Shown here one piece after another: positions 5,818 through 43,522 of a stretch of 64,000 nucleotides of DNA. Every line of letters begins with the position of its first letter. Positions within the stretch are counted from its first letter, which is position 1. This stretch comes from Bacteroidota bacterium (GTDB lineage Bacteria > Bacteroidota > Ignavibacteria > Kryptoniales > JAKASW01), in NCBI GenBank assembly GCA_021845665.1, contig JAJZVO010000023.1:1-64000 (forward strand). The letters are read 5' to 3'. The notes below the pieces were generated by a model that had not been told where the DNA came from, did no database searches, and saw only the letters and a program-made list of their open reading frames with translations. Position numbers and translations under genes: made by a program.

Positions 5818-6090
5818 ATGGCAACGAAAGTCCACCAATCCAAACCGAAGAAAGTCAAGATCGGAACAATCCTGGACGAGGAGGTCCTTCAGCGACTGAA
5901 GGAACGCTCCGTAAAAGAGGGGCGCCCGCTGAATGCGCTCATAGAAGACGCTATCCTTAAGTATGAACAGGATGAAACCTCTTCACGGGAACTGCGTTTG
6001 CGGGCATTGGATTCCGTCCTCGCCATCAAGTTCAATATAGCCGATGATGATCTCCGGCAGATAATGGAGGAGGACTTTTACGAACAATGA
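5818..6090 (+). CDS. ribbon-helix-helix antitoxin
   Basis: 90 residues. A clear ribosome-binding site (GAGGAG) lies 8-9 bases before the ATG. After a basic N-terminus comes an RHH fold signature: a short strand (KIGTILDEEVL), then two helices with RLKERSVKEGRPLNALIEDAIL. Such proteins bind operator DNA as dimers and neutralise a partner toxin with their C-terminus. The stop overlaps the ATG of the PIN-domain gene (ATGA), the usual antitoxin-toxin arrangement. The pair sits inside the BREX-like set and may stabilise it or act as an extra abortive-infection layer. Confidence 0.85.
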   Translation: MATKVHQSKPKKVKIGTILDEEVLQRLKERSVKEGRPLNALIEDAILKYEQDETSSRELRLRALDSVLAIKFNIADDDLRQIMEEDFYEQ

Positions 6091-6590
6091 ACCTGAATGA
6101 GATTAAGAAATCAGAAGTCGTCCTTCTGGACGCCAACGTCATACTTTATGGAGTCCTTCTCAAGTCAGATCAATGCGTTAGCTTGCTTCGGAGATGCGCC
6201 GAAAGGGACGTGATGGGTGTGGTGGGGCTTCAGCAGCTCGCGGAAGTCATGCACCGTCTCATGATGGTCGAGGCAAGAGAAAACGAATGGACTTCGGGAG
6301 CCAATGCCGTCAAGACTCTATCCGAGCGTCCCGAACGGGTGCAGGCTTTATCTCGATATTCCGACGCGATCAGAGGATTGATGGCAGCCGGGTTCAGGTT
6401 CGAGTCGCTGCTGAAGGAAGATTTCGGGTCTGCCTTATCACTCCAGCGTCAGTACGGTCTGCTCACAAATGATGCACTGTTAATCGCCATTGCTGAAAGG
6501 CTGCGCATCCAGTCGGTCGCGAGCGCGGACAAAACTTTTTCGCGGGTTCGTGGAATTGTACTTTATTCACCAAGTGATGTCCTGATATGA
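6087..6590 (+). CDS. PIN-domain ribonuclease toxin (VapC-like)
   Basis: 167 residues, starting at the ATG that overlaps the antitoxin stop. The N-terminal VVLLDANVILYGVL supplies the first metal-binding Asp of a PIN domain. Central acidic residues (LAEVMHRL) and the C-terminal LLTNDALLIAIAE ... VASADKTF supply the later ones, in the order seen in VapC-type RNases. Length is slightly above the usual 130-145 aa. The expected role is cleavage of specific cellular RNAs when the antitoxin is lost. Confidence 0.85.
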   Translation: MNLNEIKKSEVVLLDANVILYGVLLKSDQCVSLLRRCAERDVMGVVGLQQLAEVMHRLMMVEARENEWTSGANAVKTLSERPERVQALSRYSDAIRGLMAAGFRFESLLKEDFGSALSLQRQYGLLTNDALLIAIAERLRIQSVASADKTFSRVRGIVLYSPSDVLI

Positions 6591-21422: not shown

Positions 21423-21851
21423 CTATTTCTTCTTTAGGACCCTTTGAAGGAACGCCGCAACCCTATTCTTCTCCAGTTCCTCGCGCAGCCGGTTAAAAGG
21501 TATCATCACTGCGTTCTCCAGGATCCCAACCATATACTCAGCAGCCCTGATGTTCATGGAATGCACGACAACAGGTGTTGACTTGTTAATCGTTTCAGAC
21601 AAACGTTTCGCAACATAAATACCCGTCCCCTTTTCCACAAGCGCTTGAGATGGTACAGCCGTCAGATCATAGTCTAGGAAGATTACATCGTAATTGGCGT
21701 GATTCAGGAGCTCAACCGCTGCGAGAGGTTCTTCGACTATCTGAACCGCCTGTTCACTAAATTTGTCCGAAAGAAATTGCGACCGCAGTGCGCTATCCTC
21801 TACTACCAAAATTCTAAGTCTCTTCTTTCCCACTGTTCCGGTCTGTGCCAT
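21423..21851 (-). CDS. cyclic-phosphate-processing receiver-like (CheY-fold) protein
   Basis: About 142 residues from an ATG at 21851 (a TTG at 21863 is also in frame). The fold is CheY-like: LRILVVEDSALR gives the acidic pair and VIFLDYDLTAVP the phospho-acceptor-position Asp. Instead of the usual T/S-K pair of a response regulator it has VVVHSMNIRAAEYM. The 'HS-N' motif and 'LDxDL' resemble the receiver variant predicted to process cyclic phosphates in RNA repair or RNA-targeting conflict systems. No output domain is present. It is divergent from the CARF gene at 22012, with a perfect palindrome between them, so the two may share control. Identification is from motif resemblance only. Confidence 0.55.
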   Translation of the reverse strand: MAQTGTVGKKRLRILVVEDSALRSQFLSDKFSEQAVQIVEEPLAAVELLNHANYDVIFLDYDLTAVPSQALVEKGTGIYVAKRLSETINKSTPVVVHSMNIRAAEYMVGILENAVMIPFNRLREELEKNRVAAFLQRVLKKK

Positions 21852-21914
21852 GCCAATTCGCAATATACATCATCCACCCCGACTTTTCTCGGCGGCTTCC
21901 ATGTAAGACATGCC

Positions 21915-21928: not shown

Positions 21929-22011
21929 AGCGGCCACTACTACAAGCGCGCCCTTTTCTTGCTTGAAGTAATAGTAAGGTGTATCTTCAAGAAAACCGCG
22001 GATCCATTTCT

Positions 22012-23487
22012 ATGAACAAGTTGGTTATATGCACAACAGGAACATCGATCGCCAACGCTTGTCTTGCGCAGCGAGAAATGTTGAGGCAGCGCAAATCGTG
22101 GGATGAGGATGCTCAGCCCCTCAAGCTTCAGATACTCGACTTCTTGAGCAAACCGGAGAACGACTTGCGTCATCAGGACTTCAGGCGCAAGGTGTGCGCT
22201 GAAATGAATTCACTCGACAGGCTGGGCATGGAACGCACCGACCGGGTGGTTCTTCTTGCGAGTGATACAGCACAGGGACGTGTATGTGCTGAGATGATTA
22301 AGAAAGTAATTCAGGAATCATATTCCATGAGCAATGCGCAGGTCGAGGTCAGAAGAGTTGAAGGCCTTCAGGTTCATAATTCGGCAATGCTCAGGGAACG
22401 GGGTCTCATGAACCTTGTCGAAATCCTCTTGGACGACTATCTCACAAAAGATGAGTTGCGATACTCTTATGATGTAATTCTGAATGCCACCGGCGGATTC
22501 AAAGGTACCGTTCCATTCCTGACAATTCTTGGGATGCTTTACGGAGCGAGGACCGTTTATACATTCGAGTTCTCCAATGAACTGATAACTCTCCCTCCCT
22601 TGCCCTTTACCTTCGATGTCGAGGTTTACAATCGGGTGCGTCCCGCTCTTAACTACATTGAAGAGGAGGTTGCCGTTCGGGAACAAGCTTTTCTGAGCAA
22701 GGTGTTGAATTATTCATCTTCTGAAAAAGATATGTTCATGGCATTTACAGAGCCATACGAGAACGGCCGCGTAACCCTTTCTCCATTGGCTTATGCGTTT
22801 TTGAAGATTGACACAAGGCAAATTGTCCTCGTCAGCGAGCAGGTGTTGGATACAGTCAGACGAAGTCAGGGGATACACAAGGTTGAGTTTGAACGTCTCC
22901 TTTCCAACGTGGGTTTACCACTCTGGCGCAGGATCCACATGGAGCGCTGGCGGTTGACAGATCTCCTTGTCATCAAACAAAAACGAACTGGCGAACGAAT
23001 TGCGGGATTTGTCAGAGCTGGAGTGTTTCATGCAGCCCTTGCTTTTGCCGAGCATGAGGATTATCAACGTGTGCTTGGTAACTATAGAATGACAGATTTC
23101 GACAATGTGAATTTTGTTCAATGGGTACCCCAAGAAGATCTTGGGATCGACGAAGACTACAGCGATGGAATTGTAGAAGAACGGGATAAGCTCATCGTTG
23201 AGAAGCGGGAACTGAAAGAGCGGGTTGAGCGACTGAACGAAGACGTCATAGGTCTTCAACTGAAGACCGAAGGACAGCGAAACGCAGAGGAGAAACTCAA
23301 AGCGTTGCTCAAGGAGAGGGATCTGGAATTGGCCAGCTTGAGCCAGCAAGTGCTCTCTCTCCAGGGCGCCAAACAGATGCTTAAACAAGAAACACTTTCA
23401 TTGAAAGATGAGCTTGGGAAAGACAAAGCCTCAGGTAAAATAGACCTTAAGCAATTGATTAGAAAACTCTTTAAAGGGCACACCTAA
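22012..23487 (+). CDS. CARF-domain CRISPR-associated protein (APE2256/Csm6-like sensor) with coiled-coil tail
   Basis: About 491 residues from the ATG at 22012; an upstream in-frame GTG at 21979 is less likely because the CARF fold begins at MNKLVICTTGTSIANA. NATGGFKGTVPFLTILGMLYG (about 160-180) is the typical nucleotide-binding loop of the APE2256-like CARF group, which binds cyclic oligoadenylates made by type III Cas10. The middle region (about 240-365) is a separate domain; no HEPN R-x4-6-H motif is apparent, and parts such as HEDYQRVLG recall RelE-fold toxins as in CARF-RelE proteins (Cami1), but this is uncertain. The last 110 residues are a coiled coil with a basic tip. It lies about 1.3 kb upstream of cmr1 in the same direction and is probably an ancillary effector of that locus. 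Confidence 0.75.
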   Translation: MNKLVICTTGTSIANACLAQREMLRQRKSWDEDAQPLKLQILDFLSKPENDLRHQDFRRKVCAEMNSLDRLGMERTDRVVLLASDTAQGRVCAEMIKKVIQESYSMSNAQVEVRRVEGLQVHNSAMLRERGLMNLVEILLDDYLTKDELRYSYDVILNATGGFKGTVPFLTILGMLYGARTVYTFEFSNELITLPPLPFTFDVEVYNRVRPALNYIEEEVAVREQAFLSKVLNYSSSEKDMFMAFTEPYENGRVTLSPLAYAFLKIDTRQIVLVSEQVLDTVRRSQGIHKVEFERLLSNVGLPLWRRIHMERWRLTDLLVIKQKRTGERIAGFVRAGVFHAALAFAEHEDYQRVLGNYRMTDFDNVNFVQWVPQEDLGIDEDYSDGIVEERDKLIVEKRELKERVERLNEDVIGLQLKTEGQRNAEEKLKALLKERDLELASLSQQVLSLQGAKQMLKQETLSLKDELGKDKASGKIDLKQLIRKLFKGHT

Positions 23488-23580: not shown

Positions 23581-23655
23581 TCATTTTTTAAGCTTCTTAG
23601 CAATCCGTGCAGCGGTACCAAGCACTATGGCGATAACTTCAATTATTTCCCACAT
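23581..23655 (-). CDS. tiny amphipathic peptide ORF (24 aa)
   Basis: An ATG at 23655 is preceded on the minus strand by GGAAAGAAAGGAAG, a good Shine-Dalgarno. The product is MWEIIEVIAIVLG followed by TAARIAKKLKK: a hydrophobic helix with a basic C-terminal tip, as in small membrane-active peptides. It is too short for routine gene calling. Two similar ORFs lie upstream on the same strand (23728-23817 and 24039-24116). Confidence 0.45.
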   Translation of the reverse strand: MWEIIEVIAIVLGTAARIAKKLKK

Positions 23656-23727
23656 ATAACTTCCTTTCTTTCCAGGTCGGAAAAAATTCCGACAGCTTAT
23701 TTACCTTCCCCGGCTCCATTGTGCCGG

Positions 23728-23817
23728 CTACTCACGTGTAATCGTTTCAACGATCGTGCGCGCTGCCATGACAATGACAATGGCAATTGCGATCTTTATT
23801 CCTTTCGTGATTTTCAC
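23728..23817 (-). CDS. tiny hydrophobic peptide ORF (29 aa)
   Basis: A GTG at 23817 is preceded by AAAAGGA at about 8 bases. The product begins MKITKGIKIAIAIVIVM and ends AARTIVETITRE, again a hydrophobic helix followed by a charged segment. The same frame is open upstream to an ATG at 23943, which would give a 71-residue protein. The short form is preferred because it resembles the two neighbouring tiny ORFs. Confidence 0.35.
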   Translation of the reverse strand: MKITKGIKIAIAIVIVMAARTIVETITRE

Positions 23818-24038
23818 GATTCTTGTCCTTTTAAGAATTTGAGTGCCCGTTGGATACGATTCCTCGAGCCTGGGATACTGAAAGGCCCTCTGATTCGAGT
23901 TTAGGAAAGCGCTGAACAGATAGCAGGCAATCTCCATTTTCATCCCACCTTTGTGGAACGTCATTATTGTAGGTCGATAATTGCATCCTTCTCGCACAAA
24001 GGCATTTTAAGTGATATAGTGCCTACTGTCCTGCGTGA

Positions 24039-24116
24039 TTAAAGCTTTCCGAACTGACGCGCAATCTCAGTTACTGCTGCTGCTAATGCAACTAATGCCA
24101 CCTTAGCCCAGTTCAT
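24039..24116 (-). CDS. tiny hydrophobic peptide ORF (25 aa)
   Basis: The ATG at 24116 has a near-perfect Shine-Dalgarno (AAAGGAGG) 6-8 bases upstream, the strongest in this area. The product is MNWAKVALVALAAAV followed by TEIARQFGKL. The ribosome-binding site makes translation likely. It shares layout with the ORFs at 23581 and 23728. Confidence 0.5.
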   Translation of the reverse strand: MNWAKVALVALAAAVTEIARQFGKL

Positions 24117-24187
24117 AAGATTCCTCCTTTTGTGAACTCAACTTCGTAGACCTCTTGTCCTTGCATTCATTTGACCCTTTTTCTCGT

Positions 24188-24391
24188 TCACGGTTTCCTT
24201 CTTTTCGCAACCTCCTTCCCGTCTTTGTATCCTTCCCAATAGGCGCTGCTACCGGGTCTGGAGCCACCACTCATACCGAGGGTGAGCAGCGACATTGAAG
24301 CACTGAACCTGTCATCCGGCTTTCTGCCCGAGAGAGCGTCCCGCATCCCGCGATTGTATTCACGAATCTCGTCTTTAGTCTGCTTATCCAC
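24188..24391 (-). CDS. small unrecognised protein (67 aa)
   Basis: The best start is a GTG at 24391 with AAAGGAG about 7-13 bases upstream; a TTG at 24412 would overlap that ribosome-binding site. The product is hydrophilic at both ends (EIREYNRGMRDALSG; YWEGYKDGKEVAKRRKP) with a serine/glycine-rich middle. It has repeated Y-x-x-G-x-x-D/DG patterns (YNRGMRDA, YWEGYKDG) that I cannot place in a family. It is the first gene of the minus-strand cluster of small ORFs, with the three tiny peptides downstream. Confidence 0.45.
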   Translation of the reverse strand: MDKQTKDEIREYNRGMRDALSGRKPDDRFSASMSLLTLGMSGGSRPGSSAYWEGYKDGKEVAKRRKP

Positions 24392-24799
24392 TTTTCGAAT
24401 CTCCTTTAACAATCTGACCTCACTGTTAATAGAGTCAGCCTAAGTCTCATTTTCCACCGAGCACGCCGAAGATTTTTACCAAAAGTCGATGTCTTTCGCC
24501 ACCGATTCTACGAGACATCATGTTGGCCCCCGTCACCAGGGATGTTCAGACCCCGAAACTTTTGGTCATTCATGATTTCTCTCGTTGAGACTTTTTTCGA
24601 CGCTCATTTGGAAAATCCCGACTCTCTCCACTCTATAGTTAATGATGAGCAATTGCATGGACATTAGACCGGCATCTCTGCGTCAGCAAAACGACCTGCA
24701 AATCTTGTTCACGGGAAAGTCGGACTTTTCGGTTGACAGTTTGCTAATGTTGTTCTGAGTCACTAAAATTGGTAATCAAATAGGGAGTGCATTCTGATT
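24392..24799. other. non-coding interval upstream of cmr1
   Basis: No ORF with a ribosome-binding site was found. A TTGACA at 24733-24738 is the only promoter-like element noted and lacks a convincing -10 partner. The interval separates the minus-strand small ORFs from the plus-strand cmr operon and should hold divergent promoters. Confidence 0.3.
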
Positions 24800-25951
24800 A
24801 TGGAACAGATCAAATTCGAGTGCGAGGTAGTAACCCCTATGTTCCTCGGTGGGGCTGATCAACGGGCTGAATTGCGCGCGCCTTCTATACGCGGTGCCAT
24901 GCGGTGGTGGTTCAGGGCTATGATGGGAGGTAATCTCTTCGGCCGTTCGAGGGATTTTCTCAAAGAGGTAAAAGATATTGAAGACGCGACTTTCGGGAGC
25001 ACGTCTGGTCAAGGAAGTTTCTCTTTGTCTGTCGAGCATAATGGGATCAAAGAGAAGGACTTTAGTTCACTCAACGGTTTCTTCTTGACATACTTGGGGT
25101 TTGGTTTGAAGGATAATAAGCGAAGATACATCCCGCCACTTTTTCCCTTTGATGTCGTCTTCAGATTCCATTCCTCCGATAGCCAGATCAAGAAGCTAGT
25201 CTTGGCGACCTTCTGGATGCTCTCAAATTTCGGAAATTTAGGCGCGAGAGCTACACGCGGTTTTGGATCATTCATTGTGAAAACCCCATTGGGAGACAAC
25301 CTTCCTATTGTCGAAAGTGCTGACAAACTAGAAGAGGGTCTCAGATGCGTCGCAGGGGAGAAATATTTCAATATCCCTTCCACTCCAACCGTCACCACGG
25401 TCCCGGCGTTTTCGATTGTCTATCCCGGTTTCTGGCAATGCATCGTCCCCACAAGCAGTAAATTTCAAAACAGTGACGCTGTGCTGTTAATGAACACGAT
25501 AGGTAAAGAATTCAGATTGAGCCGAGAGAATACTAGTAGTTCATTTATGAAAACCATCGGCGGAAAGACAATCAAGGGTTTTCACACAAATGACTATGCA
25601 GCAATTTCAAAATGGTCACCGCCACCTGCTGGAGCACCAGGCACCACAATCCCGAGTCAGACAGCGTTTGGGCTGCCTCATCAATTCCAGGGCTCTGGCG
25701 GTCTAAAGATCATGGTTGAAGGTGAGAATCGGTCCAGGCGCACATCACCCCTTCATATTCACGTGCACAAATTTGGCAAGACTTATTCTGTCAGCTTTCA
25801 GGTTTTCAAGTCACAATTCCTTGATTCGAATATCAAGATTCGAGACATGAACAATGCGACTCGAACTGAAATTCTGAGTGGTACACCTTCATACTCAGAC
25901 CTCGATGCCTTCATGACAAGTTTCTCGGGCAAGAAGGACATAGTCCTATGA
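24800..25951 (+). CDS. cmr1: Cmr1, type III-B RAMP subunit
   Basis: 383 residues; AGGGAG lies about 12 bases before the ATG. The N-terminal RAMP strand FECEVVTPMFLGGADQ is followed by the diagnostic LRAPSIRGAMRWWFRAMMGG (about 28-47), and LGARATRGFGSF gives the glycine-rich loop. Cmr1 caps the 3' end of the crRNA in the Cmr complex and helps engage target RNA. It is the first gene of a tight operon; its stop overlaps the cmr2 start. Confidence 0.93.
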   Translation: MEQIKFECEVVTPMFLGGADQRAELRAPSIRGAMRWWFRAMMGGNLFGRSRDFLKEVKDIEDATFGSTSGQGSFSLSVEHNGIKEKDFSSLNGFFLTYLGFGLKDNKRRYIPPLFPFDVVFRFHSSDSQIKKLVLATFWMLSNFGNLGARATRGFGSFIVKTPLGDNLPIVESADKLEEGLRCVAGEKYFNIPSTPTVTTVPAFSIVYPGFWQCIVPTSSKFQNSDAVLLMNTIGKEFRLSRENTSSSFMKTIGGKTIKGFHTNDYAAISKWSPPPAGAPGTTIPSQTAFGLPHQFQGSGGLKIMVEGENRSRRTSPLHIHVHKFGKTYSVSFQVFKSQFLDSNIKIRDMNNATRTEILSGTPSYSDLDAFMTSFSGKKDIVL

Positions 25952-33126: not shown

Positions 33127-35409
33127 ATGAATCAGCAGTACAAATTTGAATGGGCGGAACAATCCTTGCGTTACGCGTTTCAAGGTATAGCTGCCAAAGG
33201 CTCCCGCGGAGGCATCGACAGAGTAACCGCAGAAGCCTATTCAAAGAACCTGCACTCAAATCTGTCAGCGCTGCTCAAACGCTTGCAGGAGGGGACTTAT
33301 GTTCCGTCACCCTATGAAAAGATATCCATACCAAAAGATGGCGGGTCGGTACGTATTCTCAGCCTCGCGACGGTCGAGGACAAAATAGTCCAGAGCATTG
33401 TAATGCATTATCTCGATGATACCTTCAAAGGCGTTTTTCTTGATTGCTCCTATGCTTACCGGGAAAACAAAGGCCATAAGAAAGCTATCGGCAGAGTCGA
33501 GCATTCACTCAGGGCTGCCCGCTCAGAGATGACTGCCGATGTAGACAATTTCTTTGACTCGATCGATCATTCAATCCTCGAATCCCAGCTTGCAGAAAGA
33601 ATCAAGGATGACCGGCTGCTCACACTAATCCGATTATGGATCACCACCGATTCTATCCATGATTCAAGACTCCAGAAAAGAAACATCGGCATTCCGCAGG
33701 GCGGACCCGTCTCGCCCATACTCTCGAACATCTACCTTTCTCCATTCGACAGGTTCATGGTCGGCCTCGGCAGGGCTTATATCCGCTATGCGGATAATTT
33801 CATTGTCTTCTCCGAAAACAAAAACGAGCTGGTCGAGATATTTAACCGGGCAGTCGATTACCTTCGCAGAAACCTCAGGCTCAGGCTCAACGAAGCAACT
33901 CCCGTGATATGTACTGAGGAGGAAGGCTTCGATTTTCTCGGCATCCATTTTAAAAACGGGAAGAGGACCATTGCCGACAGTAAGTTCACAAAGGCACTCA
34001 AGGAACCGGACGAGCTGAGGAGGAGACATCGTAAGGATAGCCTGGAGCGCTTGCGCGACCACTGGAACAAGATGGTACAATCATGGAGATTCTACTATGG
34101 GCCGTTTGACGTTGCAGAGCAGTTCTCATCACTAAGGCAGGAATTGCAAAAGAACCTCAGGCAGGAAATACTCTACCGGGCACAGCATGAAGAGATTCCC
34201 GAAGCAAAACTCGGAGAGATCATTTGTTCATTTGACTCCCTGACTGCGAACCCGAATGAGAACCGTGACTTTGCCGGAAGGATACTCGGTGAGATTAAGG
34301 AATTCCGAAAAGGGCGGGCCGACGGGAAGGAGGTACAGATTGCCCGAACGAGAGCCGCAAAAGTGAGGAAATTTATTCACCTCCACGTTGCCGAACACAA
34401 TCTCCTTGTGTCAACCCCGGGTTTCTTCATCGGAAGGTCGCAGGGAAAGATCCAGGTGAGGAAAGGACAGGAAGTTGTGACCGAACAACCCCTGCGAAGC
34501 ATTCACAATCTGATGCTTTCCGATCATGGCATCGGCATCTCCACCGATGTGATTGCCGAATGCGTTGAGAAGAAAACCCAGATTTTTATCGTGGACTCGA
34601 TCGGACATTACAGGGCGCTCATTATAGGAGACCCGTGGCCTCAGTTTAGCATCACTCTTTCCCAGGTCAATGCAGCCAACAGCTGGCTGGGCTCCCAGTG
34701 CGCGTTCAATTTCGTCGATGCGAAGATCAGGAATCAGGTCAACCTTCTTCGTTACTACGCCAAGTATCATTACGATGCAAACAGAAACTACGCTGAGGTC
34801 ATCTCCAAAGAAATCCCACGGATGGAGAAGGTGCTGACCGACATTTCCGCGCTGAATAGGAAAGGGTCTCTTCCAGGTGAGTACAATTCGGCAGTTTTCG
34901 GTCTTGAGGGACAGGCGGCCATTTCCTACTGGGCATGCATCGCCGCATTAATTGGAGACGAATGGGCCTTTACAAAGAGAGAACATCAGAACGCCGCAAA
35001 TATTGTTAACAAGATGCTCAATTACGGTTACGGCGTCCTGTCGTCGAAAATCCTCATCGCGATTATTTCGAGCGGATTGAACCCAATGATCAGCTTCCTG
35101 CATTCTGCCCAGGAAGGGAGACCATCTTTGGTCTTCGATGTCATGGAGCAATTCCGCCCCACTTGTGTGGACAGGGTCGTGGTCAGCATGTTGCTTCGAA
35201 AGGAAAGAGTCGAGAAAGACGGTGAGAAACTCCCGATCGAGCTGAGGAAAAGGATTGCCAGCGGGGTGCTGACGAAGATGGGCACTGAGTTCCAGTACCG
35301 CGGGAAAAGGCAGACAATCGAGGAAATACTGGCTAAACAGCTCGGCGATGTAGTCGAATTCCTCCAGGGGAAAACAAGAAACTTCAGGGCATTCCTCTCG
35401 AGATGGTGA
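33127..35409 (+). CDS. RT-cas1: reverse transcriptase-Cas1 fusion
   Basis: 760 residues. The N-terminal 330 or so are a group II intron-like RT: IDRVTAEAY, YEKISIPKDGGSVRILSL, the motif A aspartates in ADVDNFFDSIDH (about 137-148), GIPQGGPVSPILSNIY (188-203), and the active-site box YADN (221-224), where most RTs have YADD. The C-terminal 350 residues are a full Cas1: HNLLVSTPGFFIG, the catalytic Glu region VFGLEGQAAISYW, and SFLHSAQEGRPSLVFDVMEQFRP with the catalytic His and acidic residues. Fusions of this type let type III systems acquire spacers from RNA. There is no N-terminal Cas6 domain; cas6 is a separate gene. Confidence 0.95.
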   Translation: MNQQYKFEWAEQSLRYAFQGIAAKGSRGGIDRVTAEAYSKNLHSNLSALLKRLQEGTYVPSPYEKISIPKDGGSVRILSLATVEDKIVQSIVMHYLDDTFKGVFLDCSYAYRENKGHKKAIGRVEHSLRAARSEMTADVDNFFDSIDHSILESQLAERIKDDRLLTLIRLWITTDSIHDSRLQKRNIGIPQGGPVSPILSNIYLSPFDRFMVGLGRAYIRYADNFIVFSENKNELVEIFNRAVDYLRRNLRLRLNEATPVICTEEEGFDFLGIHFKNGKRTIADSKFTKALKEPDELRRRHRKDSLERLRDHWNKMVQSWRFYYGPFDVAEQFSSLRQELQKNLRQEILYRAQHEEIPEAKLGEIICSFDSLTANPNENRDFAGRILGEIKEFRKGRADGKEVQIARTRAAKVRKFIHLHVAEHNLLVSTPGFFIGRSQGKIQVRKGQEVVTEQPLRSIHNLMLSDHGIGISTDVIAECVEKKTQIFIVDSIGHYRALIIGDPWPQFSITLSQVNAANSWLGSQCAFNFVDAKIRNQVNLLRYYAKYHYDANRNYAEVISKEIPRMEKVLTDISALNRKGSLPGEYNSAVFGLEGQAAISYWACIAALIGDEWAFTKREHQNAANIVNKMLNYGYGVLSSKILIAIISSGLNPMISFLHSAQEGRPSLVFDVMEQFRPTCVDRVVVSMLLRKERVEKDGEKLPIELRKRIASGVLTKMGTEFQYRGKRQTIEEILAKQLGDVVEFLQGKTRNFRAFLSRW

Positions 35410-35820: not shown

Positions 35821-35834
35821 CTTTGAAAACCTGA
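35652..35834 (+). CDS. doubtful small ORF inside the leader
   Basis: 60 codons with GGAGGG about 6 bases before the ATG, a good ribosome-binding site. The product is basic, contains three cysteines and runs into the first CRISPR repeat before stopping. It resembles nothing known. It might be a fortuitous frame in the leader; the ribosome-binding site is the only positive evidence. Confidence 0.2.
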   Translation: MVKTTLRSSRVQISAKCEWSCERNEYGYVNCSDGASSAARGYLQRGDEIHNLLRKRSLKT

Positions 35835-37717
35835 CTTATGGTTGAAGGATGGAAACCAAAACAGATTTTAATGTTTCGCTGTCAAATGTTTCTTTGAAAA
35901 CCTGACTTATGGTTGAAGGATGGAAACAATCTCCACGAGACATTACCACACTAACTATCTTGTCCTTTGAAAACCTGACTTATGGTTGAAGGATGGAAAC
36001 AAATATGGAACAGTTTTTGCGGCGGTATACGCAAACCACTTTGAAAACCTGACTTATGGTTGAAGGATGGAAACGACCGTCAAAGTCCCCAATTAATCCG
36101 CGGTCGTGCATGTCTTTGAAAACCTGACTTATGGTTGAAGGATGGAAACCCTGGAGCCAATAGAAATAGGTTCCGGAAGGAAGACGCGCTTTGAAAACCT
36201 GACTTATGGTTGAAGGATGGAAACAGTCCGGACAGTCGTCGGGACACTGCTCGCAAGGGCACTTTGAAAACCTGACTTATGGTTGAAGGATGGAAACTGT
36301 CCTCCTCAATGTAGGAGGTGTGAAGTATCTGTATCTCTTTGAAAACCTGACTTATGGTTGAAGGATGGAAACTGTCCACGGCGCTCCAAGTAAGGCCGCC
36401 ATCGGTACTTTGAAAACCTGACTTATGGTTGAAGGATGGAAACAGAGATGTGATGTCCGCATTCCAATCGGTGGTATCTGGCTTTGAAAACCTGACTTAT
36501 GGTTGAAGGATGGAAACTCTGACTCAACGCGAAGGTTGTTGGAACAGGCGGGTTATCCTTTGAAAACCTGACTTATGGTTGAAGGATGGAAACGCGCAGA
36601 AGTGATGGTTCACGTCCGAACAAACGGCGACCTTTGAAAACCTGACTTATGGTTGAAGGATGGAAACGCCGGAGTTACTACACGTTTCGAGATACACCAC
36701 TGAATCGCTTTGAAAACCTGACTTATGGTTGAAGGATGGAAACGGGACATAATGTCTCGCACCTCGTGCTCGGTCACATCACCCTTTGAAAACCTGACTT
36801 ATGGTTGAAGGATGGAAACGAACTTTCCGGGCTATCAGTGTAACCACTAAAAAGGACCCTTTGAAAACCTGACTTATGGTTGAAGGATGGAAACAGATTG
36901 GTGAAAATCAGTTGCGGGGAACTTGCCGCTTTGAAAACCTGACTTATGGTTGAAGGATGGAAACAGTAGTACTGAGACCAATAAATATTTCCTACAGCTT
37001 CTGGCTTTGAAAACCTGACTTATGGTTGAAGGATGGAAACTCTGCGAGTTTCCGTCTTGCGGTAGTAGATGTAACCTACTTTGAAAACCTGACTTATGGT
37101 TGAAGGATGGAAACAGATAACCACCATAATCGCCGTTTGAATAACTAATATTCCCTTTGAAAACCTGACTTATGGTTGAAGGATGGAAACAAGCTGAACG
37201 TTGTGGCGACGGGCGGGTTATCAACGACCTTTGAAAACCTGACTTATGGTTGAAGGATGGAAACTATACAGCTCTTCCGCTGTCCCCTCGGGGAATTCCT
37301 CGGGCTTTGAAAACCTGACTTATGGTTGAAGGATGGAAACGCTTTTTTCGAGCTTTCTTCCAACCCCATGTCGTACTTTGAAAACCTGACTTATGGTTGA
37401 AGGATGGAAACTCTGTTCTTCAGAAGGTTTTCCATCGAAACACTTCCGTTTTCTTTGAAAACCTGACTTATGGTTGAAGGATGGAAACAATTTCTGGTCG
37501 ATAGGAGACCGACTGAACGGCTGCCTCGAGAGGCTTTGAAAACCTGACTTATGGTTGAAGGATGGAAACGTGGTCGCAGCGGTAGGTGGAATTTGGATCC
37601 ACCGCTTTGAAAACCTGACTTATGGTTGAAGGATGGAAACGAGAATTTGGCTGAACCTTCCCCGGTCGGTACCAATAAGACCTTTGAAAACCTGACTTAT
37701 GGTTGAAGGATGGAAAT
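35821..37717 (+). CRISPR. type III CRISPR array, 26 repeats and 25 spacers
   Basis: The 36-base repeat begins CTTTGAAAACCTGACTTATG and ends GTTGAAGGATGGAAAC. Repeat starts are at 35821, 35892, 35965, 36039, 36114, 36189, 36262, 36337, 36408, 36482, 36558, 36632, 36708, 36784, 36859, 36929, 37005, 37079, 37155, 37229, 37305, 37376, 37453, 37534, 37605 and 37682. Spacers are 34-45 bases, mostly 35-41. The repeats looked uniform except the last, which ends GGAAAT, marking the distal end. The expected crRNA 5' handle is ATGGAAAC. Spacers at 36518-36557 and 37191-37228 target related coding sequences. Confidence 0.98.
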
Positions 37718-37896
37718 TCCAAAGTTGCCCACTTAGACCGCGAAGCGGGGTAAGCGGCAGCAACTCTGAGAATCCCGCCGAAGGCTTACTCGAGGCGTCG
37801 ATCGATACCCGTTGGTTTGTAGTGCGCTTGTAAGTTTCGCTGAATCTTGCTATCGTATTTTCAACAATCGGTGCCTTAGATACGAGGTTGAGCAGA

Positions 37897-38367
37897 ATGG
37901 ACGAGTTCTTCGAACACTTGGAGTATGATCTGACAAGCCGGCTCTTGCATCAGCTTAGATTTGAAAAGAAGTTACAGAAGAGGTTGCGTTCGCGGAGAAA
38001 CGCGACCGAAGAGACGGATGATGCGTATTCTGACTATAGTTTAGGGACGATCTGGGTCGTTGACGACCACAAGGTGCATTTTCGCGGTCGGCGCGACGAA
38101 AAATCATATCATGACGGAAGGCGGCCAGGGGTAGTTATCGTCTCTCCCTGCAAAGAGACGCGTTACGAGGTCTGCTGGATCCCGGGATCATCCAAAATCG
38201 CGGGGCGACCTATAGCCCGTATAGTGGTCAGCGAGAACTCGGCCTATCTCTTGTGCGAAAAAGAGTGGTATCGTCCTCAGACTCTCGAATCGAAGAGAGG
38301 AGACTTGCCCCCCGACAAGCTTCTCGAACTGCGGCACAAATGGGATGAACTGGAATGCGATGAGTAA
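37897..38367 (+). CDS. PemK/MazF-like protein
   Basis: About 156 residues from the ATG at 37897, with GAGG about 10 bases upstream; a TTG at 37888 is in frame. After an N-terminal charged helical segment (about 1-45) comes a PemK/MazF-type SH3-like barrel: SLGTIWVVDD, RRPGVVIVSP, IARIVVSENSAYLL and a C-terminal helix LPPDKLLELRHKWDEL. MazF-family proteins are usually mRNA interferases, but a homologue serves as the sigma-binding partner in the CalpL-CalpT-CalpS type III signalling module. It overlaps the sigma-like gene by eight bases and is the first gene after the CRISPR array. Confidence 0.65.
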   Translation: MDEFFEHLEYDLTSRLLHQLRFEKKLQKRLRSRRNATEETDDAYSDYSLGTIWVVDDHKVHFRGRRDEKSYHDGRRPGVVIVSPCKETRYEVCWIPGSSKIAGRPIARIVVSENSAYLLCEKEWYRPQTLESKRGDLPPDKLLELRHKWDELECDE

Positions 38368-39364
38368 CCGCTTTCAGGATAACCTGGCAGAACTTGTAAC
38401 TCTTATCCGCAAGCTCCGAAATGAATCTACTCTGAAGCCGAAAGAGCACGCGAGTGTTAACAAGCGGTTTGATCGAGTTCTTGCCGAGTTCGTTCACTCT
38501 ATGGCGTCCTCATACTCAACTTACCCCTATACATTAGATGAGTTCAAGGATCTCCTGGGAGAAGTTCAAAAGAACATCGCAACAAATCTTCTTAGAAAAG
38601 ATGCCTTTGAAAATGGAGATACCATCGACGGAGCCCCCGACGATCGGATTAAAGGATGGATAAAAACAACCACGAGTAACGCGCTCAGGAACGACCCCTC
38701 CCCTCAAAAGAGAGACTATCGTTACCTGTTGACGACAATCAATAACACTCTGAAGAGGATGGAAAATTCAGGAGAATTTGACTCTTCTAAAATTGTGGAA
38801 TATCGTTTTGAAGAGTTGAGACGAAAGATTCTTAATGAGATTGACGTGTCAGAGTCCAAAGGGAAAAGCCTTGCCAGGAAGGTCGCAGAAATTGCGAGGA
38901 GGATACTAAAATTGGCCGGCGGTATGATCGAGCGACGCGATTTGAATGATTTGGTTAGCGAGATCACTGGCATTTACAAACCCGTCAAGGAGAGTCCTGG
39001 AGACGAGTCGAACAAGAATGTTGTCGATGATATTCCATCGGTTGACGATTTACCAAAAGAGATAATCATTGACATTGAGTCTGCAACCGAACGCCTTCTG
39101 ACACGCCTCGAAGGGCGGAAGGATCCACGATTGTTGCCAATACTTTGCTATAAATTTGTTCATGAGTTGACTTATAGGGAGATTCAATCGAGGACTAAGA
39201 TACCGAAGCAGACTCAGGATTTTCTTCTTAAACGAAGGATACTACCAGATCTCTACAACGCGATCAAGAATTGCAGCAGGGATCCCGACTATAGAATCGT
39301 TGCAAAGTTTCGTGAAAAGGTTTTAGAAGGTTTGAGCAAAAGGGGGATACAATGCGAAGCCTGA
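38360..39364 (+). CDS. sigma-factor-like protein
   Basis: About 334 residues from the ATG at 38360, overlapping the previous stop. Residues about 45-115 resemble sigma region 2 (LDEFKDLLGEVQKNIATNL, RIKGWIKTTTSNALRND). Near the C-terminus, LLPILCYKFVHELTYREIQSRTKIPKQTQDFLLKRRILPDL reads as a region 4-type helix-turn-helix. The two parts are separated by a long charged, helical linker, so it is larger than an ECF sigma factor (about 180-200 aa). It would redirect RNA polymerase once freed from an inhibitor. The next gene starts 13 bases before its stop, the usual arrangement for sigma/anti-sigma pairs. The sigma call is from motif resemblance. Confidence 0.6.
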   Translation: MSNRFQDNLAELVTLIRKLRNESTLKPKEHASVNKRFDRVLAEFVHSMASSYSTYPYTLDEFKDLLGEVQKNIATNLLRKDAFENGDTIDGAPDDRIKGWIKTTTSNALRNDPSPQKRDYRYLLTTINNTLKRMENSGEFDSSKIVEYRFEELRRKILNEIDVSESKGKSLARKVAEIARRILKLAGGMIERRDLNDLVSEITGIYKPVKESPGDESNKNVVDDIPSVDDLPKEIIIDIESATERLLTRLEGRKDPRLLPILCYKFVHELTYREIQSRTKIPKQTQDFLLKRRILPDLYNAIKNCSRDPDYRIVAKFREKVLEGLSKRGIQCEA

Positions 39365-40545
39365 GCCAGAGAAAGGGCAAATCGCAACGTCTCCCGGAGA
39401 TTCCGGACAGATATGAGATTGCCGAGTATGTTCAGGGGAGACTTTCAAAAAGCCGGCGAAAGCAGATAAAAGAGTTGCTTGAGTCTGATGACCCTGTTGC
39501 AATAGGTGTGAAGATTGACTTTGAAGAAATAAAGAGCCGTATTAAAGCCATGCCCTTCAGACCGCTTTCTAGTAATGCAACCGGTGTGCTTCAAGCTCGC
39601 ATGCAGGCGGTCCTCAGACATTCAGGGATGCCAGCCCCGGGGGAAATATGGTCACTTCAGTTGCAGAAATCTAATTCCGGGATCTCCAGAGATCGATCCG
39701 TTTTGATCTTTCATATCCATGGCGGATTCGCGCGAGTTGCACCAGTGACTAAGGAAACCGATTTTGCCGGTCCGCGTGATATTATTGTGCGCGACCGATC
39801 CTATGCCTTCGTGCCTTTCATGCTCGAGTTGTTCGCGTCATTCTGGACTGATTTGAGTCTGCTAACTGATCAAGGCGAATTCGAAGCCCGTGTTTCAGAG
39901 AAGACTCTTTCTGCAGCACGTAGAGCGGACAGGGGCATCTATAGCAATTTGCCTCGCGGCGTCAGACGCGGCTCCGTCCAGGAAATATCAGACATTGAAG
40001 AGTTCCATGAGGAATGGCGAGAAGGAGAGCGGATGCTCTTTGAAAAATTCAAAACAACACCGTACGTGCTGGAAGAATTCGAAGCGGCTGATGTCGAGAA
40101 GGTAGCTGAACCACAGTCGATACCCATCCCTGTCTCTTTCATTTCGTACCAACAGCCCACGCAATACGTGTACCGTCTCGCCGCGGCTGACCAGACATTC
40201 ACGGTCTCTGAATTCCAATTCTGGGAAAAGGAAAGGGGCCTTTCTGGCCAAATGCGTCGCCTCATTCTCCAGGCCCCATCCTTTGAAGTGCGTGTCTCGA
40301 TAGTCGATGGCCACCTCTTCTTGGTTGCTGAACGAGCCGACAAGTCACCGAAGATTGTATCAGACGTTTCCTTGTCCAGTGGTGAAACAAACATTCTCAC
40401 TACGGAGAACTCCGTTCAGTTCTCAACATCCCAGAGAGTTCATCTTCATTTTGATGTTGATCCTGCACTCCCTCTCACAGGGCGGTGGATTTTGCGTTTC
40501 AGCCTTGATGATAAGGGGTATCAGAACGAGGTCGAATTCAAATGA
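39352..40545 (+). CDS. PemK/MazF-core protein, candidate anti-sigma factor
   Basis: 397 residues. The N-terminal 55 residues (RYEIAEYVQGRLSKSRRKQIKELLES) look like the helical sigma-binding segment of cytoplasmic anti-sigma factors, without the zinc ligands. Residues about 95-145 have a PemK/MazF-like barrel: GEIWSLQLQKSNSGISRDRSVLIF, FARVAPVTKETDFAGPRDIIV. The remainder is an unrecognised beta-rich region with an Ig-like end (TGRWILRFSLDDKGYQNEVEF). Position between a sigma-like gene and a Lon-like protease gene mirrors CalpS-CalpT-CalpL, where a MazF homologue holds the sigma factor until cleaved. The anti-sigma role is an inference. Confidence 0.55.
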   Translation: MRSLSQRKGKSQRLPEIPDRYEIAEYVQGRLSKSRRKQIKELLESDDPVAIGVKIDFEEIKSRIKAMPFRPLSSNATGVLQARMQAVLRHSGMPAPGEIWSLQLQKSNSGISRDRSVLIFHIHGGFARVAPVTKETDFAGPRDIIVRDRSYAFVPFMLELFASFWTDLSLLTDQGEFEARVSEKTLSAARRADRGIYSNLPRGVRRGSVQEISDIEEFHEEWREGERMLFEKFKTTPYVLEEFEAADVEKVAEPQSIPIPVSFISYQQPTQYVYRLAAADQTFTVSEFQFWEKERGLSGQMRRLILQAPSFEVRVSIVDGHLFLVAERADKSPKIVSDVSLSSGETNILTTENSVQFSTSQRVHLHFDVDPALPLTGRWILRFSLDDKGYQNEVEFK

Positions 40546-41714
40546 ACATCGTGCGACGCGAGCAGGAAGCACAAGGTCACCTTGAGCTGGGCAACTATCG
40601 ACAAGCACAGGAAATCTACAAAGAACTTGCAGAGAACGAAAGCGATCTTAGTTCGAAGAACCACTTCAACGATTCTGCAAATGCTGCCGAGGCGTTTGCC
40701 ACAGAATTCACTGGCTTGCGTGTGGGAGAAGCCCTATGTCCTATCGTCGACAAGAGGACAGGTCATGGTTGTCTCTGTGTAGTCCAAACGGGTAAAGTGC
40801 GTGACTTACATGGCCGCCTCGTTTCGCAGTCCATCGGGACCTCATTTGAACTGTTTCCTCAGCTGATGTTGAATTGGACGCCGGTAACGGAACTAATTGC
40901 AACTTTCCTTTCTCCTCTGGTAAGTTCGTTCGGGAGATTATCGGTACTCAACTGGGGTTGGGATTGTTGGAAGCCTTCAGTTCGCAAATTGCCACACCGC
41001 TCTAATGAGAGAGCCAAGGATCCACAAGGTGAGTCATCTCAACTGGCCATGGCATTGGCGATTATATCTGAAATTACCTCCAGGCCCATCGGTGCGGGAT
41101 TTGCATTCACAGGAAGACTTGTAACGGAGGGAGGAAAGGTTTGCGTAGAACGGGTTGAAGACATTGCTGAGAAAGTCAGAGTATCCCTGAAGGAACTGCC
41201 TCAGGTAGGAACGATATTTGTTCCTCATTCAAATGAGCGTGAGGCACTTCAGGAAGCTCGGCAGATCGGAAAAGAAGCGCAGACAAGAGCCGTGTCAACT
41301 CTCGAAGAGGTTATCGAAGTTGTTTTCCCGGGCTTCAATGCGGATTTCTTGCGGATGGTTGAGGACAGGCACATCGGATCTGATTGGCTGTATCTGGACC
41401 TAAGAGAGAATTCTGAACATGTTCTGCAGTTCGAGTCTCTCCGAAACGGTTCCGCTTTGGTCGATCATAAAACAATTGGGTCTATTCAATTGCCCTCGCT
41501 TCCTGATGGGACTCGGGGGCTAATCTTAAATGGCCCGTTGCCTATTTTTCTAACATCCACGCTGACTCCAAGATATATTAGACACTATCAGATTTTTTTC
41601 GCGGTGAGTCTTGGCAAGGACCGGAAGTACGCGGTCGTCACCGCCGGACATGCGCTCGCGCCTCGACAAGTTGGAGATGTTGTTTCATTCGAGCCGTCTC
41701 CGGAACAAGACTGA
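40542..41714 (+). CDS. TPR-Lon-like protease with Csx3-like C-terminal domain
   Basis: 390 residues; the ATG overlaps the preceding stop. Residues 1-35 look like one TPR repeat. About 160-245 align with the Lon proteolytic domain: GESSQLAMALAIISEIT matches GPSAG..., FAFTGRL matches the MTGE strand, and EDIAEKV matches KEKL. The catalytic dyad would be Ser165 and Lys211, both present, with a three-residue insertion compared with E. coli Lon. Residues about 315-390 (LPSLPDGTRGLILNGPLPIF, FFAVSLGKDRKYAVVTAGHA, VGDVVSFEP) resemble Csx3, a cyclic tetra-adenylate-binding protein. There is no AAA module and no SAVED domain. It is probably a ligand-controlled protease. Confidence 0.65.
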   Translation: MNIVRREQEAQGHLELGNYRQAQEIYKELAENESDLSSKNHFNDSANAAEAFATEFTGLRVGEALCPIVDKRTGHGCLCVVQTGKVRDLHGRLVSQSIGTSFELFPQLMLNWTPVTELIATFLSPLVSSFGRLSVLNWGWDCWKPSVRKLPHRSNERAKDPQGESSQLAMALAIISEITSRPIGAGFAFTGRLVTEGGKVCVERVEDIAEKVRVSLKELPQVGTIFVPHSNEREALQEARQIGKEAQTRAVSTLEEVIEVVFPGFNADFLRMVEDRHIGSDWLYLDLRENSEHVLQFESLRNGSALVDHKTIGSIQLPSLPDGTRGLILNGPLPIFLTSTLTPRYIRHYQIFFAVSLGKDRKYAVVTAGHALAPRQVGDVVSFEPSPEQD

Positions 41715-41721
41715 CGCGACC

Positions 41722-43041
41722 ATGAAAGAAAACGTCCTCTTTTCTACCCTGGGTGTCACCGCCCCTGTAATCTCAGAAACAATCAACTTGCTTGAGGCCG
41801 AGGGAAAATCGATTAACAAACTTGTAGTCGTTCACACCTCCTTCAAAGACGTTCTTCACAAACAAACTCCATCAGGGAAAGATATAGGGCTCGTGGCACT
41901 GAAGGAGTATATCGGAAGTAAACGCGGCAACATCGCGGTTGAATCAATAGACTTGGGGATTGAAGACATTCTCACGGAAAATGATAACACAAAGGTCCTC
42001 CACGTTTTGATGAATGCCATCGAGGAGGAAAGAAATAAGCAAAACACTGTCTATGTAAGCATCGCTGGCGGGCGAAAAACGATGTCCGCCGCCGCCTTGT
42101 TTGCCGCTTATGCAGTAGGCTGTGACGGAATATATCATGTCCTGGTTAATGGCAGAGAAGAGGAACTTACAGACGCATATGGTTTCGATGTTCCACTGGA
42201 TAAGCTTACTCTGATTAGAATTCCTCCAGTCAATCTTTCACTGATGTTGAAGACGGTGATTGAGGAGATTGACACAAACAACCTCTTTCGCGGAGATATC
42301 TCTGCATATCTGCAGGATAAGGAGAGAGTTGAAGAAGTATTCAGTTATCTAAACGACGGATTACGGGCGTCACTGGATCTGCGTAAACTTCACGAGGAAC
42401 ATAACCGGCGTTATTCGCTTTACGAGAGAATGAACCAAACCGTTCTCGCTATCCTGCAAGGCCGGATCCGGAAATCCGCGGTTATGAAACCGCAATATGA
42501 GAGCAGGGTGAAAACCTTCGAAAGCTTCATACGGAAAATTGCCGAGAAACGGGGCAGAGGAGAAACGTTCCAAGATCCGTTCGAAAGGATACATGACCTA
42601 TCGGCGGTCAGAATTGTCACGTACTTTCAAGAGGATCTGGATACCCTCGAAAAGATGATCGATGGCATGATTACCGAACGGGTGGATTTTGAACCTTATC
42701 CCGATCCCGACAAGGCAAAAAAGATTAAGAAGCCGGAGGTGGTTGGATATACCGGAATTCATTATCTGGTCGGACTTCGCCCCGATCGGACAGCTCTCCT
42801 GGAATATGAAAGGCTGTCCGGATTATGGTGTGAAATTCAGCTCAAGACAATTTTCGATCATGCCTGGTCCCAGGTCGATCATCGTCTCCGGTTCAAGTCA
42901 GAAGAATTCCATGCGATGTCGAAAGAACAAAAGGACGAAGTCCTGGCGGTGTTCGCAGATGCGGCCAGGTTGTTGAACGAAAGCAAAGCCGTTTTCAGTA
43001 CTCTGCGCGAAACTTACGAGCATTTCAGAAAAGAGACCTAG
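41722..43041 (+). CDS. CARF-RelA/SpoT alarmone synthetase fusion
   Basis: About 439 residues from the ATG at 41722; an upstream frame at 41611 lies inside the protease gene. The N-terminal half is a CARF fold of the NE0113-like group: LFSTLGVTAPVISETINLL and VSIAGGRKTMSAAALFAAY (about 112-130). The C-terminal half is a (p)ppGpp synthetase domain with all key motifs: SRVKTFESF (R262, K264), IHDLSAVRI (D292), GYTGIHYLV (Y343, H347) and EIQLKTIFDHAWSQVDH (E371, Q373). A helical linker (about 175-250) joins them. No HD hydrolase domain is present. Binding of cyclic oligoadenylate to CARF would switch on alarmone synthesis, or tRNA pyrophosphorylation as in toxSAS enzymes, and so cause growth arrest. 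Confidence 0.85.
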   Translation: MKENVLFSTLGVTAPVISETINLLEAEGKSINKLVVVHTSFKDVLHKQTPSGKDIGLVALKEYIGSKRGNIAVESIDLGIEDILTENDNTKVLHVLMNAIEEERNKQNTVYVSIAGGRKTMSAAALFAAYAVGCDGIYHVLVNGREEELTDAYGFDVPLDKLTLIRIPPVNLSLMLKTVIEEIDTNNLFRGDISAYLQDKERVEEVFSYLNDGLRASLDLRKLHEEHNRRYSLYERMNQTVLAILQGRIRKSAVMKPQYESRVKTFESFIRKIAEKRGRGETFQDPFERIHDLSAVRIVTYFQEDLDTLEKMIDGMITERVDFEPYPDPDKAKKIKKPEVVGYTGIHYLVGLRPDRTALLEYERLSGLWCEIQLKTIFDHAWSQVDHRLRFKSEEFHAMSKEQKDEVLAVFADAARLLNESKAVFSTLRETYEHFRKET

Positions 43042-43128: not shown

Positions 43129-43521
43129 ATGCTTATCAACCTCTCAAATCACCCGCTAACAGCATGGGATAACTCGCAGCGACATGCCGCACAAGAAGAG
43201 TACGGTCTGTTAGCCGACCTTCCGTTCCCACCTGTTCCAGCTAACGCCGGGTTGCAGGAAGTCCAACAGAAAGTGGAAGAATACATTTCGCTCTGTCAGG
43301 CTATGTTTGACGATTACTTCCAGACCGGAGGAATTGCTGACAAGAATCGCAACGCAATACATGTTATGGGGGAATTCACTTTCGTCTATTTGTTTGTTGC
43401 CCGTTGCCGGAAGTTGTCGATTCCGTGTGTCGCGTCCACCACGGATCGCATTGTTGTCGATAATACGGACGGTTCCAAGACAACCCGCTTCAACTTCTTG
43501 CAATTCAGGCCTTACTTCTAA
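43129..43521 (+). CDS. small CRISPR-associated protein, candidate ring nuclease
   Basis: 130 residues. MLINLSNHPLTAWDNSQ, YGLLADLPFPPVPANA and the C-terminal VVDNTDGSKTTRFNFLQF give a Rossmann-like pattern seen in short proteins encoded next to type III effector genes, some considered candidates for cyclic-oligoadenylate ring nucleases (Csx15-like). The resemblance is from memory and no catalytic residues are established. It lies between two CARF effector genes and ends one base before the next ATG, so it could limit the lifetime of the signal. Confidence 0.45.
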   Translation: MLINLSNHPLTAWDNSQRHAAQEEYGLLADLPFPPVPANAGLQEVQQKVEEYISLCQAMFDDYFQTGGIADKNRNAIHVMGEFTFVYLFVARCRKLSIPCVASTTDRIVVDNTDGSKTTRFNFLQFRPYF

Positions 43522-43522
43522 G

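What the first reader, a model, noticed from the sequence alone, without database searches (positions are those of the whole stretch)
23581..24391. Cluster of tiny amphipathic-peptide ORFs with strong ribosome-binding sites between two CRISPR-related genes
Three ORFs of 24-29 codons on the minus strand share a layout: hydrophobic helix followed by a charged, basic C-terminus with an A/I-A-R type junction. Each has its own Shine-Dalgarno. With the 67-aa gene upstream they may form an operon of membrane-active peptides (toxins, or effectors of abortive infection) that no standard annotation would show.
Basis: partly seen in the sequence, partly recalled or inferred. Interest (0 to 1): 0.72.

Follow-up and report, generated by a model that had tools for sequence, protein, structure and literature searches.

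The report
Orphan tiny membrane-peptide genes beside CRISPR
Three tiny genes for membrane-seeking peptides, each with its own ribosome landing site, sit between a CRISPR toxin gene and the CRISPR effector operon; they are too unusual to be chance, but no relative was found anywhere, so the idea that they are infection-triggered toxins is untested.

Summary
On the minus strand, between a Cami1-like CARF-RelE gene (21979-23487 +) and cmr1 (24800 +), lie four small ORFs. Three encode cationic hydrophobic helices of 25, 29 and 24 aa (24039-24116, 23728-23817, 23581-23655); a 67-aa hydrophilic ORF (24188-24391) lies upstream. All four have AAGGA-or-better Shine-Dalgarno sites. Three such ORFs on one strand occurred in 0 of 1000 shuffles at hydropathy cut-offs of 1.6 or more. 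In about 158 kb of intergenic DNA of the same genome they are the only ORFs with hydropathy of at least 2.2 and a positive in-frame coding score (driven by amino-acid composition, not synonymous codon choice).

No relative was found: none in the 12 other same-genus genomes; for the 67-aa ORF also none in about 400 phylum genomes, phages, plasmids, viral contigs or an 84,980-species set; no similar peptides in 20 other loci with a CARF gene of the same family. The three peptides are not detectably paralogous. No sigma-54 site, Rfam match, CreA-like repeat or convincing operon promoter was found.

Best reading: lineage-specific membrane-peptide genes working like type I toxins (e.g. TisB). Toxicity, operon and CRISPR role are inference. 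Interest is modest.

The parts
24188..24391 (-). ORF1, 67-aa hydrophilic orphan protein, GTG start; SD AAGGAG at 24401-24406
   Evidence: best-scoring frame, synonymous part positive; no homologue
24039..24116 (-). ORF2, 25-aa cationic hydrophobic peptide MNWAKVALVALAAAVTEIARQFGKL; SD AAGGAGG at 24123-24129
23728..23817 (-). ORF3, 29-aa cationic hydrophobic peptide, GTG start; SD AAGGA at 23826-23830; an in-frame ATG at 23943 would give 71 aa
23805..23819 (-). Hairpin UCGUGA-AAA-UCACGA that holds the ORF3 start codon
   Evidence: start codon unpaired probability 0.00, lower than all but about 1% of 124 SD-bearing genes of the genome
23581..23655 (-). ORF4, 24-aa cationic hydrophobic peptide MWEIIEVIAIVLGTAARIAKKLKK; SD AAGGA at 23662-23666
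23676..23693 (.). Perfect hairpin GTCGGAA-TTTT-TTCCGAC between ORF3 and ORF4, terminator-like on the + strand (end of the convergent CARF-RelE transcript?)
21979..23487 (+). Convergent neighbour: Cami1-like CARF-RelE effector, 502 aa (context, not part of the cluster)
   Evidence: PF09651, PADLOC CARF_RelE, Cami1 8phb/8phj best by sequence and by fold
24800..25951 (+). Divergent neighbour: cmr1, first gene of the type III-B operon (context)
   Evidence: RAMP family

Best explanation
The cluster is a set of genuine, lineage-specific small-protein genes: three cationic membrane-inserting helical peptides plus a 67-aa hydrophilic protein. They most likely work like type I toxins such as TisB: kept silent by transcriptional and mRNA-structure control (the ORF3 start codon sits in a tight hairpin), and, when translated, inserting in the inner membrane and dissipating the membrane potential so that growth stops. 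Shown: the ORFs, SD sites, hydropathy and charge, their non-random clustering, the predicted hairpin at the ORF3 start. Inferred: translation, membrane insertion, toxicity, any antitoxin (an RNA, or ORF1), and any link to the adjacent type III-B defence system.
For: SD plus hydrophobic small ORFs: 3 seen against 0.10 expected, 0 of 1000 shuffles; three of the top seven of 143 in about 158 kb of intergenic DNA, the only ones >=2.2 with positive coding score; own frame scores best of six for all four ORFs; net charge +2/+3/+3 and helical moments like TisB's; ORF3 start locked in a hairpin. Type I toxins are mostly 18-51 aa in E. coli, mostly membrane-active, and tisB translation is limited by its mRNA structure (PMC7667032); most carry a positively charged C-terminus (PMC8309996).
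Against: No homologue of any ORF, so no conservation evidence of coding. The coding score of ORF2-4 comes from amino-acid composition; the synonymous part is slightly negative. Amphipathicity exceeds composition shuffles clearly only for ORF2. ORF2 and ORF4 starts are not unusually hidden. No antitoxin RNA or promoter was identified.
Confidence: 0.38

Rival explanations
1. Real small membrane proteins that are not toxins: single-helix regulators or stabilisers of a larger membrane complex (in the manner of KdpF, AcrZ or MgrB, named from general knowledge).
For: Same anatomy evidence as above; many known bacterial small membrane proteins are regulators (PMC7667032 introduction).
Against: No membrane complex is recognised among the nearest genes; three different peptides in a row is unusual for a single-subunit partner.
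Confidence: 0.25
2. Chance open frames in a rapidly evolving intergenic stretch; no functional peptide is made.
For: No conservation anywhere; synonymous codon choice uninformative; the region was picked by eye and the hydropathy cut-off set after seeing it.
Against: 0 of 1000 shuffles at cut-offs from 1.6 to 2.2, 1 of 1000 at 1.2, and the real-DNA background of the same genome both make chance unlikely.
Confidence: 0.22
3. Effectors of the type III-B immune response: made only on infection, under one of the cyclic-oligoadenylate-sensing regulators of this locus (for example the CARF-sigma-54 activator at 43307-45163).
For: Position between a Cami1-like gene and cmr1; Cas10 keeps GGDD; CARF-sigma-54 and CARF-RelA genes in the same window; membrane effectors are known in type III systems, and Cam3 always lies just downstream of cami1 in 12 III-B loci (PMC11229360).
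Against: No sigma-54 site of acceptable quality upstream of the cluster; no such peptides in 20 other loci with a CARF gene of the same family; the peptides cannot hold a sensor domain.
Confidence: 0.09
4. A leaderless multi-peptide bacteriocin cluster exported to kill competitors.
For: Several short cationic helical peptides in tandem, each with its own RBS.
Against: The nearest genes on both sides are a receiver-domain protein, the Cami1-like gene and the cmr operon; no exporter or immunity gene was recognised beside the cluster. Peptides are shorter than usual.
Confidence: 0.04
5. A CRISPR-regulated toxin-antitoxin (CreTA): toxin gene repressed by a CRISPR-like guide RNA.
For: Tiny toxin-like ORFs in an intergenic stretch at a cas locus.
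Against: The best match to the array repeat in the region is reached by 66 of 200 shuffles, and no spacer matched the region above the reporting cut-off. Published CreTA modules are described for type I systems with RNA toxins (PMC8501985, PMC9458426).
Confidence: 0.02

Closest known systems
Membrane-acting type I toxin peptides (TisB, Hok, TimP and similar)
   Same: Size, hydrophobic helix, net positive charge; ORF3 has a structured start region as tisB mRNA has
   Different: No sequence homology, no antisense RNA shown, three different peptides in a row behind a 67-aa protein
Membrane effectors of type III CRISPR (Cam1, Csx23, Cam2, Cam3)
   Same: Membrane-directed products at a type III locus; Cam3 lies next to cami1 as these do
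   Different: These have no sensor domain, are 24-29 aa instead of multi-domain or six-helix proteins, lie on the opposite strand and are not conserved
Leaderless multi-peptide bacteriocins (aureocin A70 type)
   Same: Tandem short cationic helical peptides
   Different: Shorter, no exporter or immunity gene recognised alongside
CreTA CRISPR-regulated toxin-antitoxin
   Same: Small toxin-like gene in an intergenic stretch at a cas locus
   Different: No degenerate repeat or CreA-like RNA; type III instead of type I

Membership tests
Type I toxin-antitoxin | Small hydrophobic toxin peptide with membrane helix | tested here: met
   24-29 aa, 12-residue hydropathy 2.3-2.9, net charge +2 to +3
Type I toxin-antitoxin | Antisense or trans-acting RNA antitoxin that blocks toxin translation | not testable with these tools
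   No Rfam match; needs RNA-seq
Type I toxin-antitoxin | mRNA structure that limits toxin translation (common, not universal) | tested here: inconclusive
   ORF3 start hidden (about 1st percentile of native genes), ORF2 and ORF4 ordinary
Type I toxin-antitoxin | Toxicity on overexpression | not testable with these tools
   Experiment required
Type III CRISPR ancillary effector | Domain that senses cyclic oligoadenylate or another Cas10 product | tested here: not met
   Peptides of 24-29 aa; no Pfam, NCBIfam or PADLOC match for any ORF searched
Type III CRISPR ancillary effector | Recurrent association with type III loci | tested here: not met
   None in 20 loci with a CARF gene of the same family; no homologue
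CreTA | Degenerate CRISPR repeat beside the toxin gene | tested here: not met
   66 of 200 shuffles reach the best score
Leaderless bacteriocin | Linked exporter or immunity genes | tested here: not met
   Adjacent genes are a receiver domain, Cami1-like and cmr genes

The most novel reading that the evidence does not exclude
A type III-B locus carries a battery of sensor-less, membrane-depolarising micro-peptides whose expression is unlocked during the antiviral response: a peptide-based abortive-infection arm unlike any known CARF or SAVED effector.
Probability: 0.07. Interest if true: 0.8.

Novelty: new member of a known kind. Interest (0 to 1): 0.33.

Why it matters
If real, these are genes that standard annotation skips, inside a rich type III-B defence locus. 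If they are toxic and induced on infection, they would add a peptide arm to CRISPR immunity. As it stands they are a small, cheap-to-test set of orphan membrane peptides, and an example of where tiny genes can be recognised by clustering without conservation.

Tried and rejected
Homology of ORF1: 100 relatives, about 400 phylum genomes, phages, plasmids, viral contigs, 84,980-species contigs, Pfam, NCBIfam, PHROGs, PADLOC, PDB: nothing beyond noise. DNA of the intergenic stretch: no match in 40 relatives. Synteny: one close cmr relative, whose contig begins inside cmr1; the CARF-RelE gene has only distant relatives (17-24% identical overall) in 391 genomes of the class. CreTA through a degenerate repeat: not significant. 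Sigma-54 control: no good site. Rfam: none. Paralogy of the three peptides: not significant. ORF1 structure from a single sequence: low confidence, pLDDT 61.

Full report
OBSERVATION. The sequence was read on both strands. Between a plus-strand CARF gene ending at 23487 and cmr1 starting at 24800 there are four minus-strand small ORFs, in order of transcription: ORF1 (24188-24391, 67 aa, GTG), ORF2 (24039-24116, 25 aa), ORF3 (23728-23817, 29 aa, GTG) and ORF4 (23581-23655, 24 aa). Each has an AAGGA-or-better Shine-Dalgarno at a normal distance. This genome uses such sites for ordinary genes: in the window 34 of 43 long ORFs have one of at least 4 nt at some plausible start.

IS IT MORE THAN CHANCE? 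SD-preceded small ORFs alone are not remarkable: the stretch is expected to hold 1.2, and 57 of 1000 shuffles have three or more on one strand. SD-preceded small ORFs with a strongly hydrophobic 12-residue stretch are: 0.10 expected at a cut-off of 1.6, three seen, 0 of 1000 shuffles; 1 of 1000 at a laxer cut-off of 1.2. A second control used real DNA: 718 kb of the same genome, about 158 kb of it outside predicted genes. There the three peptides rank 1st, 4th and 7th in hydropathy among 143 SD-preceded small ORFs and are the only ones at 2.2 or above with a positive in-frame coding score, all within 540 bases (a first pass on 37 kb). In a same-genus genome the top hit of the same scan looks like SecE (my reading of its sequence), so the scan can find real small membrane proteins. 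Caution: the coding score of ORF2-4 comes from amino-acid composition; its synonymous part is slightly negative, as it also is for cmr2 and the CARF gene, so codon choice does not discriminate here. The hydropathy cut-off was also chosen after the fact, which is why a range is given.

RELATIVES. ORF1 has no homologue in 100 relatives, about 400 genomes of the phylum, phages, plasmids, viral contigs, genome contigs, or in Pfam, NCBIfam, PHROGs, PADLOC and PDB beyond noise. ORF2-4 match nothing but themselves, and one chance hit at E about 1, in 60 relatives that include all 12 other held members of the genus. The DNA of the stretch matches nothing in 40 relatives. The only close cmr relative, a Bacteroidetes MAG contig of the same genus (JAKASW010000367.1, 91% in Cmr2), starts inside cmr1 and cannot say whether the cluster is there. 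In 20 other loci with a CARF gene of the same family, with about 59 kb of intergenic DNA, not one such peptide was found under a rule that picks out these three (and one other ORF, at 16526) in the window. The cluster is an orphan, and not a conserved companion of such loci.

THE PEPTIDES. ORF2, 3 and 4 carry net charges +2, +3 and +3, and their best 18-residue helical moments are 0.49-0.52, against 0.50 for TisB in the same computation. Amphipathicity exceeds composition shuffles clearly only for ORF2 (0.02), marginally for ORF4 (0.065) and not for ORF3 (0.18). The apparent shared AAR/IAR junction is not above chance (0.09-0.26 with block-preserving shuffles), so descent from one ancestor is not shown. 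The ORF3 GTG lies inside a UCGUGA-AAA-UCACGA hairpin; its start codon is less accessible than in all but about 1% of 124 SD-bearing genes, while ORF2 and ORF4 starts are ordinary. An in-frame ATG at 23943 would make ORF3 71 aa long and the hairpin irrelevant to its start; that extension has a lower per-codon score than the 29-aa part.

NEIGHBOURHOOD. The convergent neighbour is a Cami1-like CARF-RelE effector: PF09651, PADLOC CARF_RelE models, Cami1 as best PDB match by sequence and by fold, although the RelE region of the model is of low confidence. The divergent neighbour is cmr1. Cas10/Cmr2 keeps a GGDD motif, so cyclic-oligoadenylate signalling is plausible. The window also encodes a CARF-RelA/SpoT protein and a CARF-sigma-54 activator. 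Whether the latter could drive the cluster was tested: no acceptable -24/-12 site lies upstream. A CreTA arrangement was tested too: no degenerate repeat above chance and no matching spacer.

HOW IT MOST LIKELY WORKS. The best-supported reading is a set of genuine small membrane-peptide genes acting in the manner of type I toxins: silent by default, membrane-inserting and depolarising when made. The anatomy supports the kind of molecule; nothing here shows translation, toxicity, an antitoxin or a CRISPR role. From the literature: type I toxins in E. coli are mostly 18-51 aa, most act on the membrane, and tisB translation is limited by mRNA structure (PMC7667032); most carry a positively charged C-terminus (PMC8309996). 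Cam3, a membrane protein, always lies just downstream of cami1 in 12 type III-B loci (PMC11229360), which makes a membrane partner at this position conceivable, but the peptides here are on the other strand, far smaller and not conserved.

VERDICT. Interest is moderate to low until the peptides are shown to be made.

Noticed in passing
window 40542-41714 (+), with the preceding genes 37888-40545: The gene at 40542 has a weak Lon-protease C-terminal match in the middle (above Pfam's cut-off) and a sub-threshold Csx3 match at its C-terminus, a possible Csx3-sensing Lon protease. The genes before it have no Pfam match; 38345-39364 ends in what looks by eye like a sigma-factor region. This could be an analogue of the CalpL/CalpT/CalpS cascade.
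   Followed up: partly
window 41611-43041 (+): CARF domain fused to a RelA/SpoT-type synthetase domain: a possible link from cyclic oligoadenylate to alarmone synthesis.
   Followed up: partly
window 43307-45163 (+): CARF domain fused to a sigma-54 activator (RtcR/PspF-like). In the genus only the AAA+ part has relatives at the threshold used. Its target promoters were not found in the window.
   Followed up: partly
window 33127-35409 (+) and 35821-37717: Reverse transcriptase-Cas1 fusion followed by a CRISPR array of 26 repeats CTTTGAAAACCTGACTTATGGTTGAAGGATGGAAAC.
   Followed up: no
window 21423-21863 (-): Cyclic-phosphate-processing type receiver domain (cREC) directly before the Cami1-like gene, on the opposite strand.
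   Followed up: no
window 5818-6590 (+): Weak ribbon-helix-helix antitoxin-like gene followed by a PIN-domain gene: a likely VapBC-type toxin-antitoxin pair.
   Followed up: no
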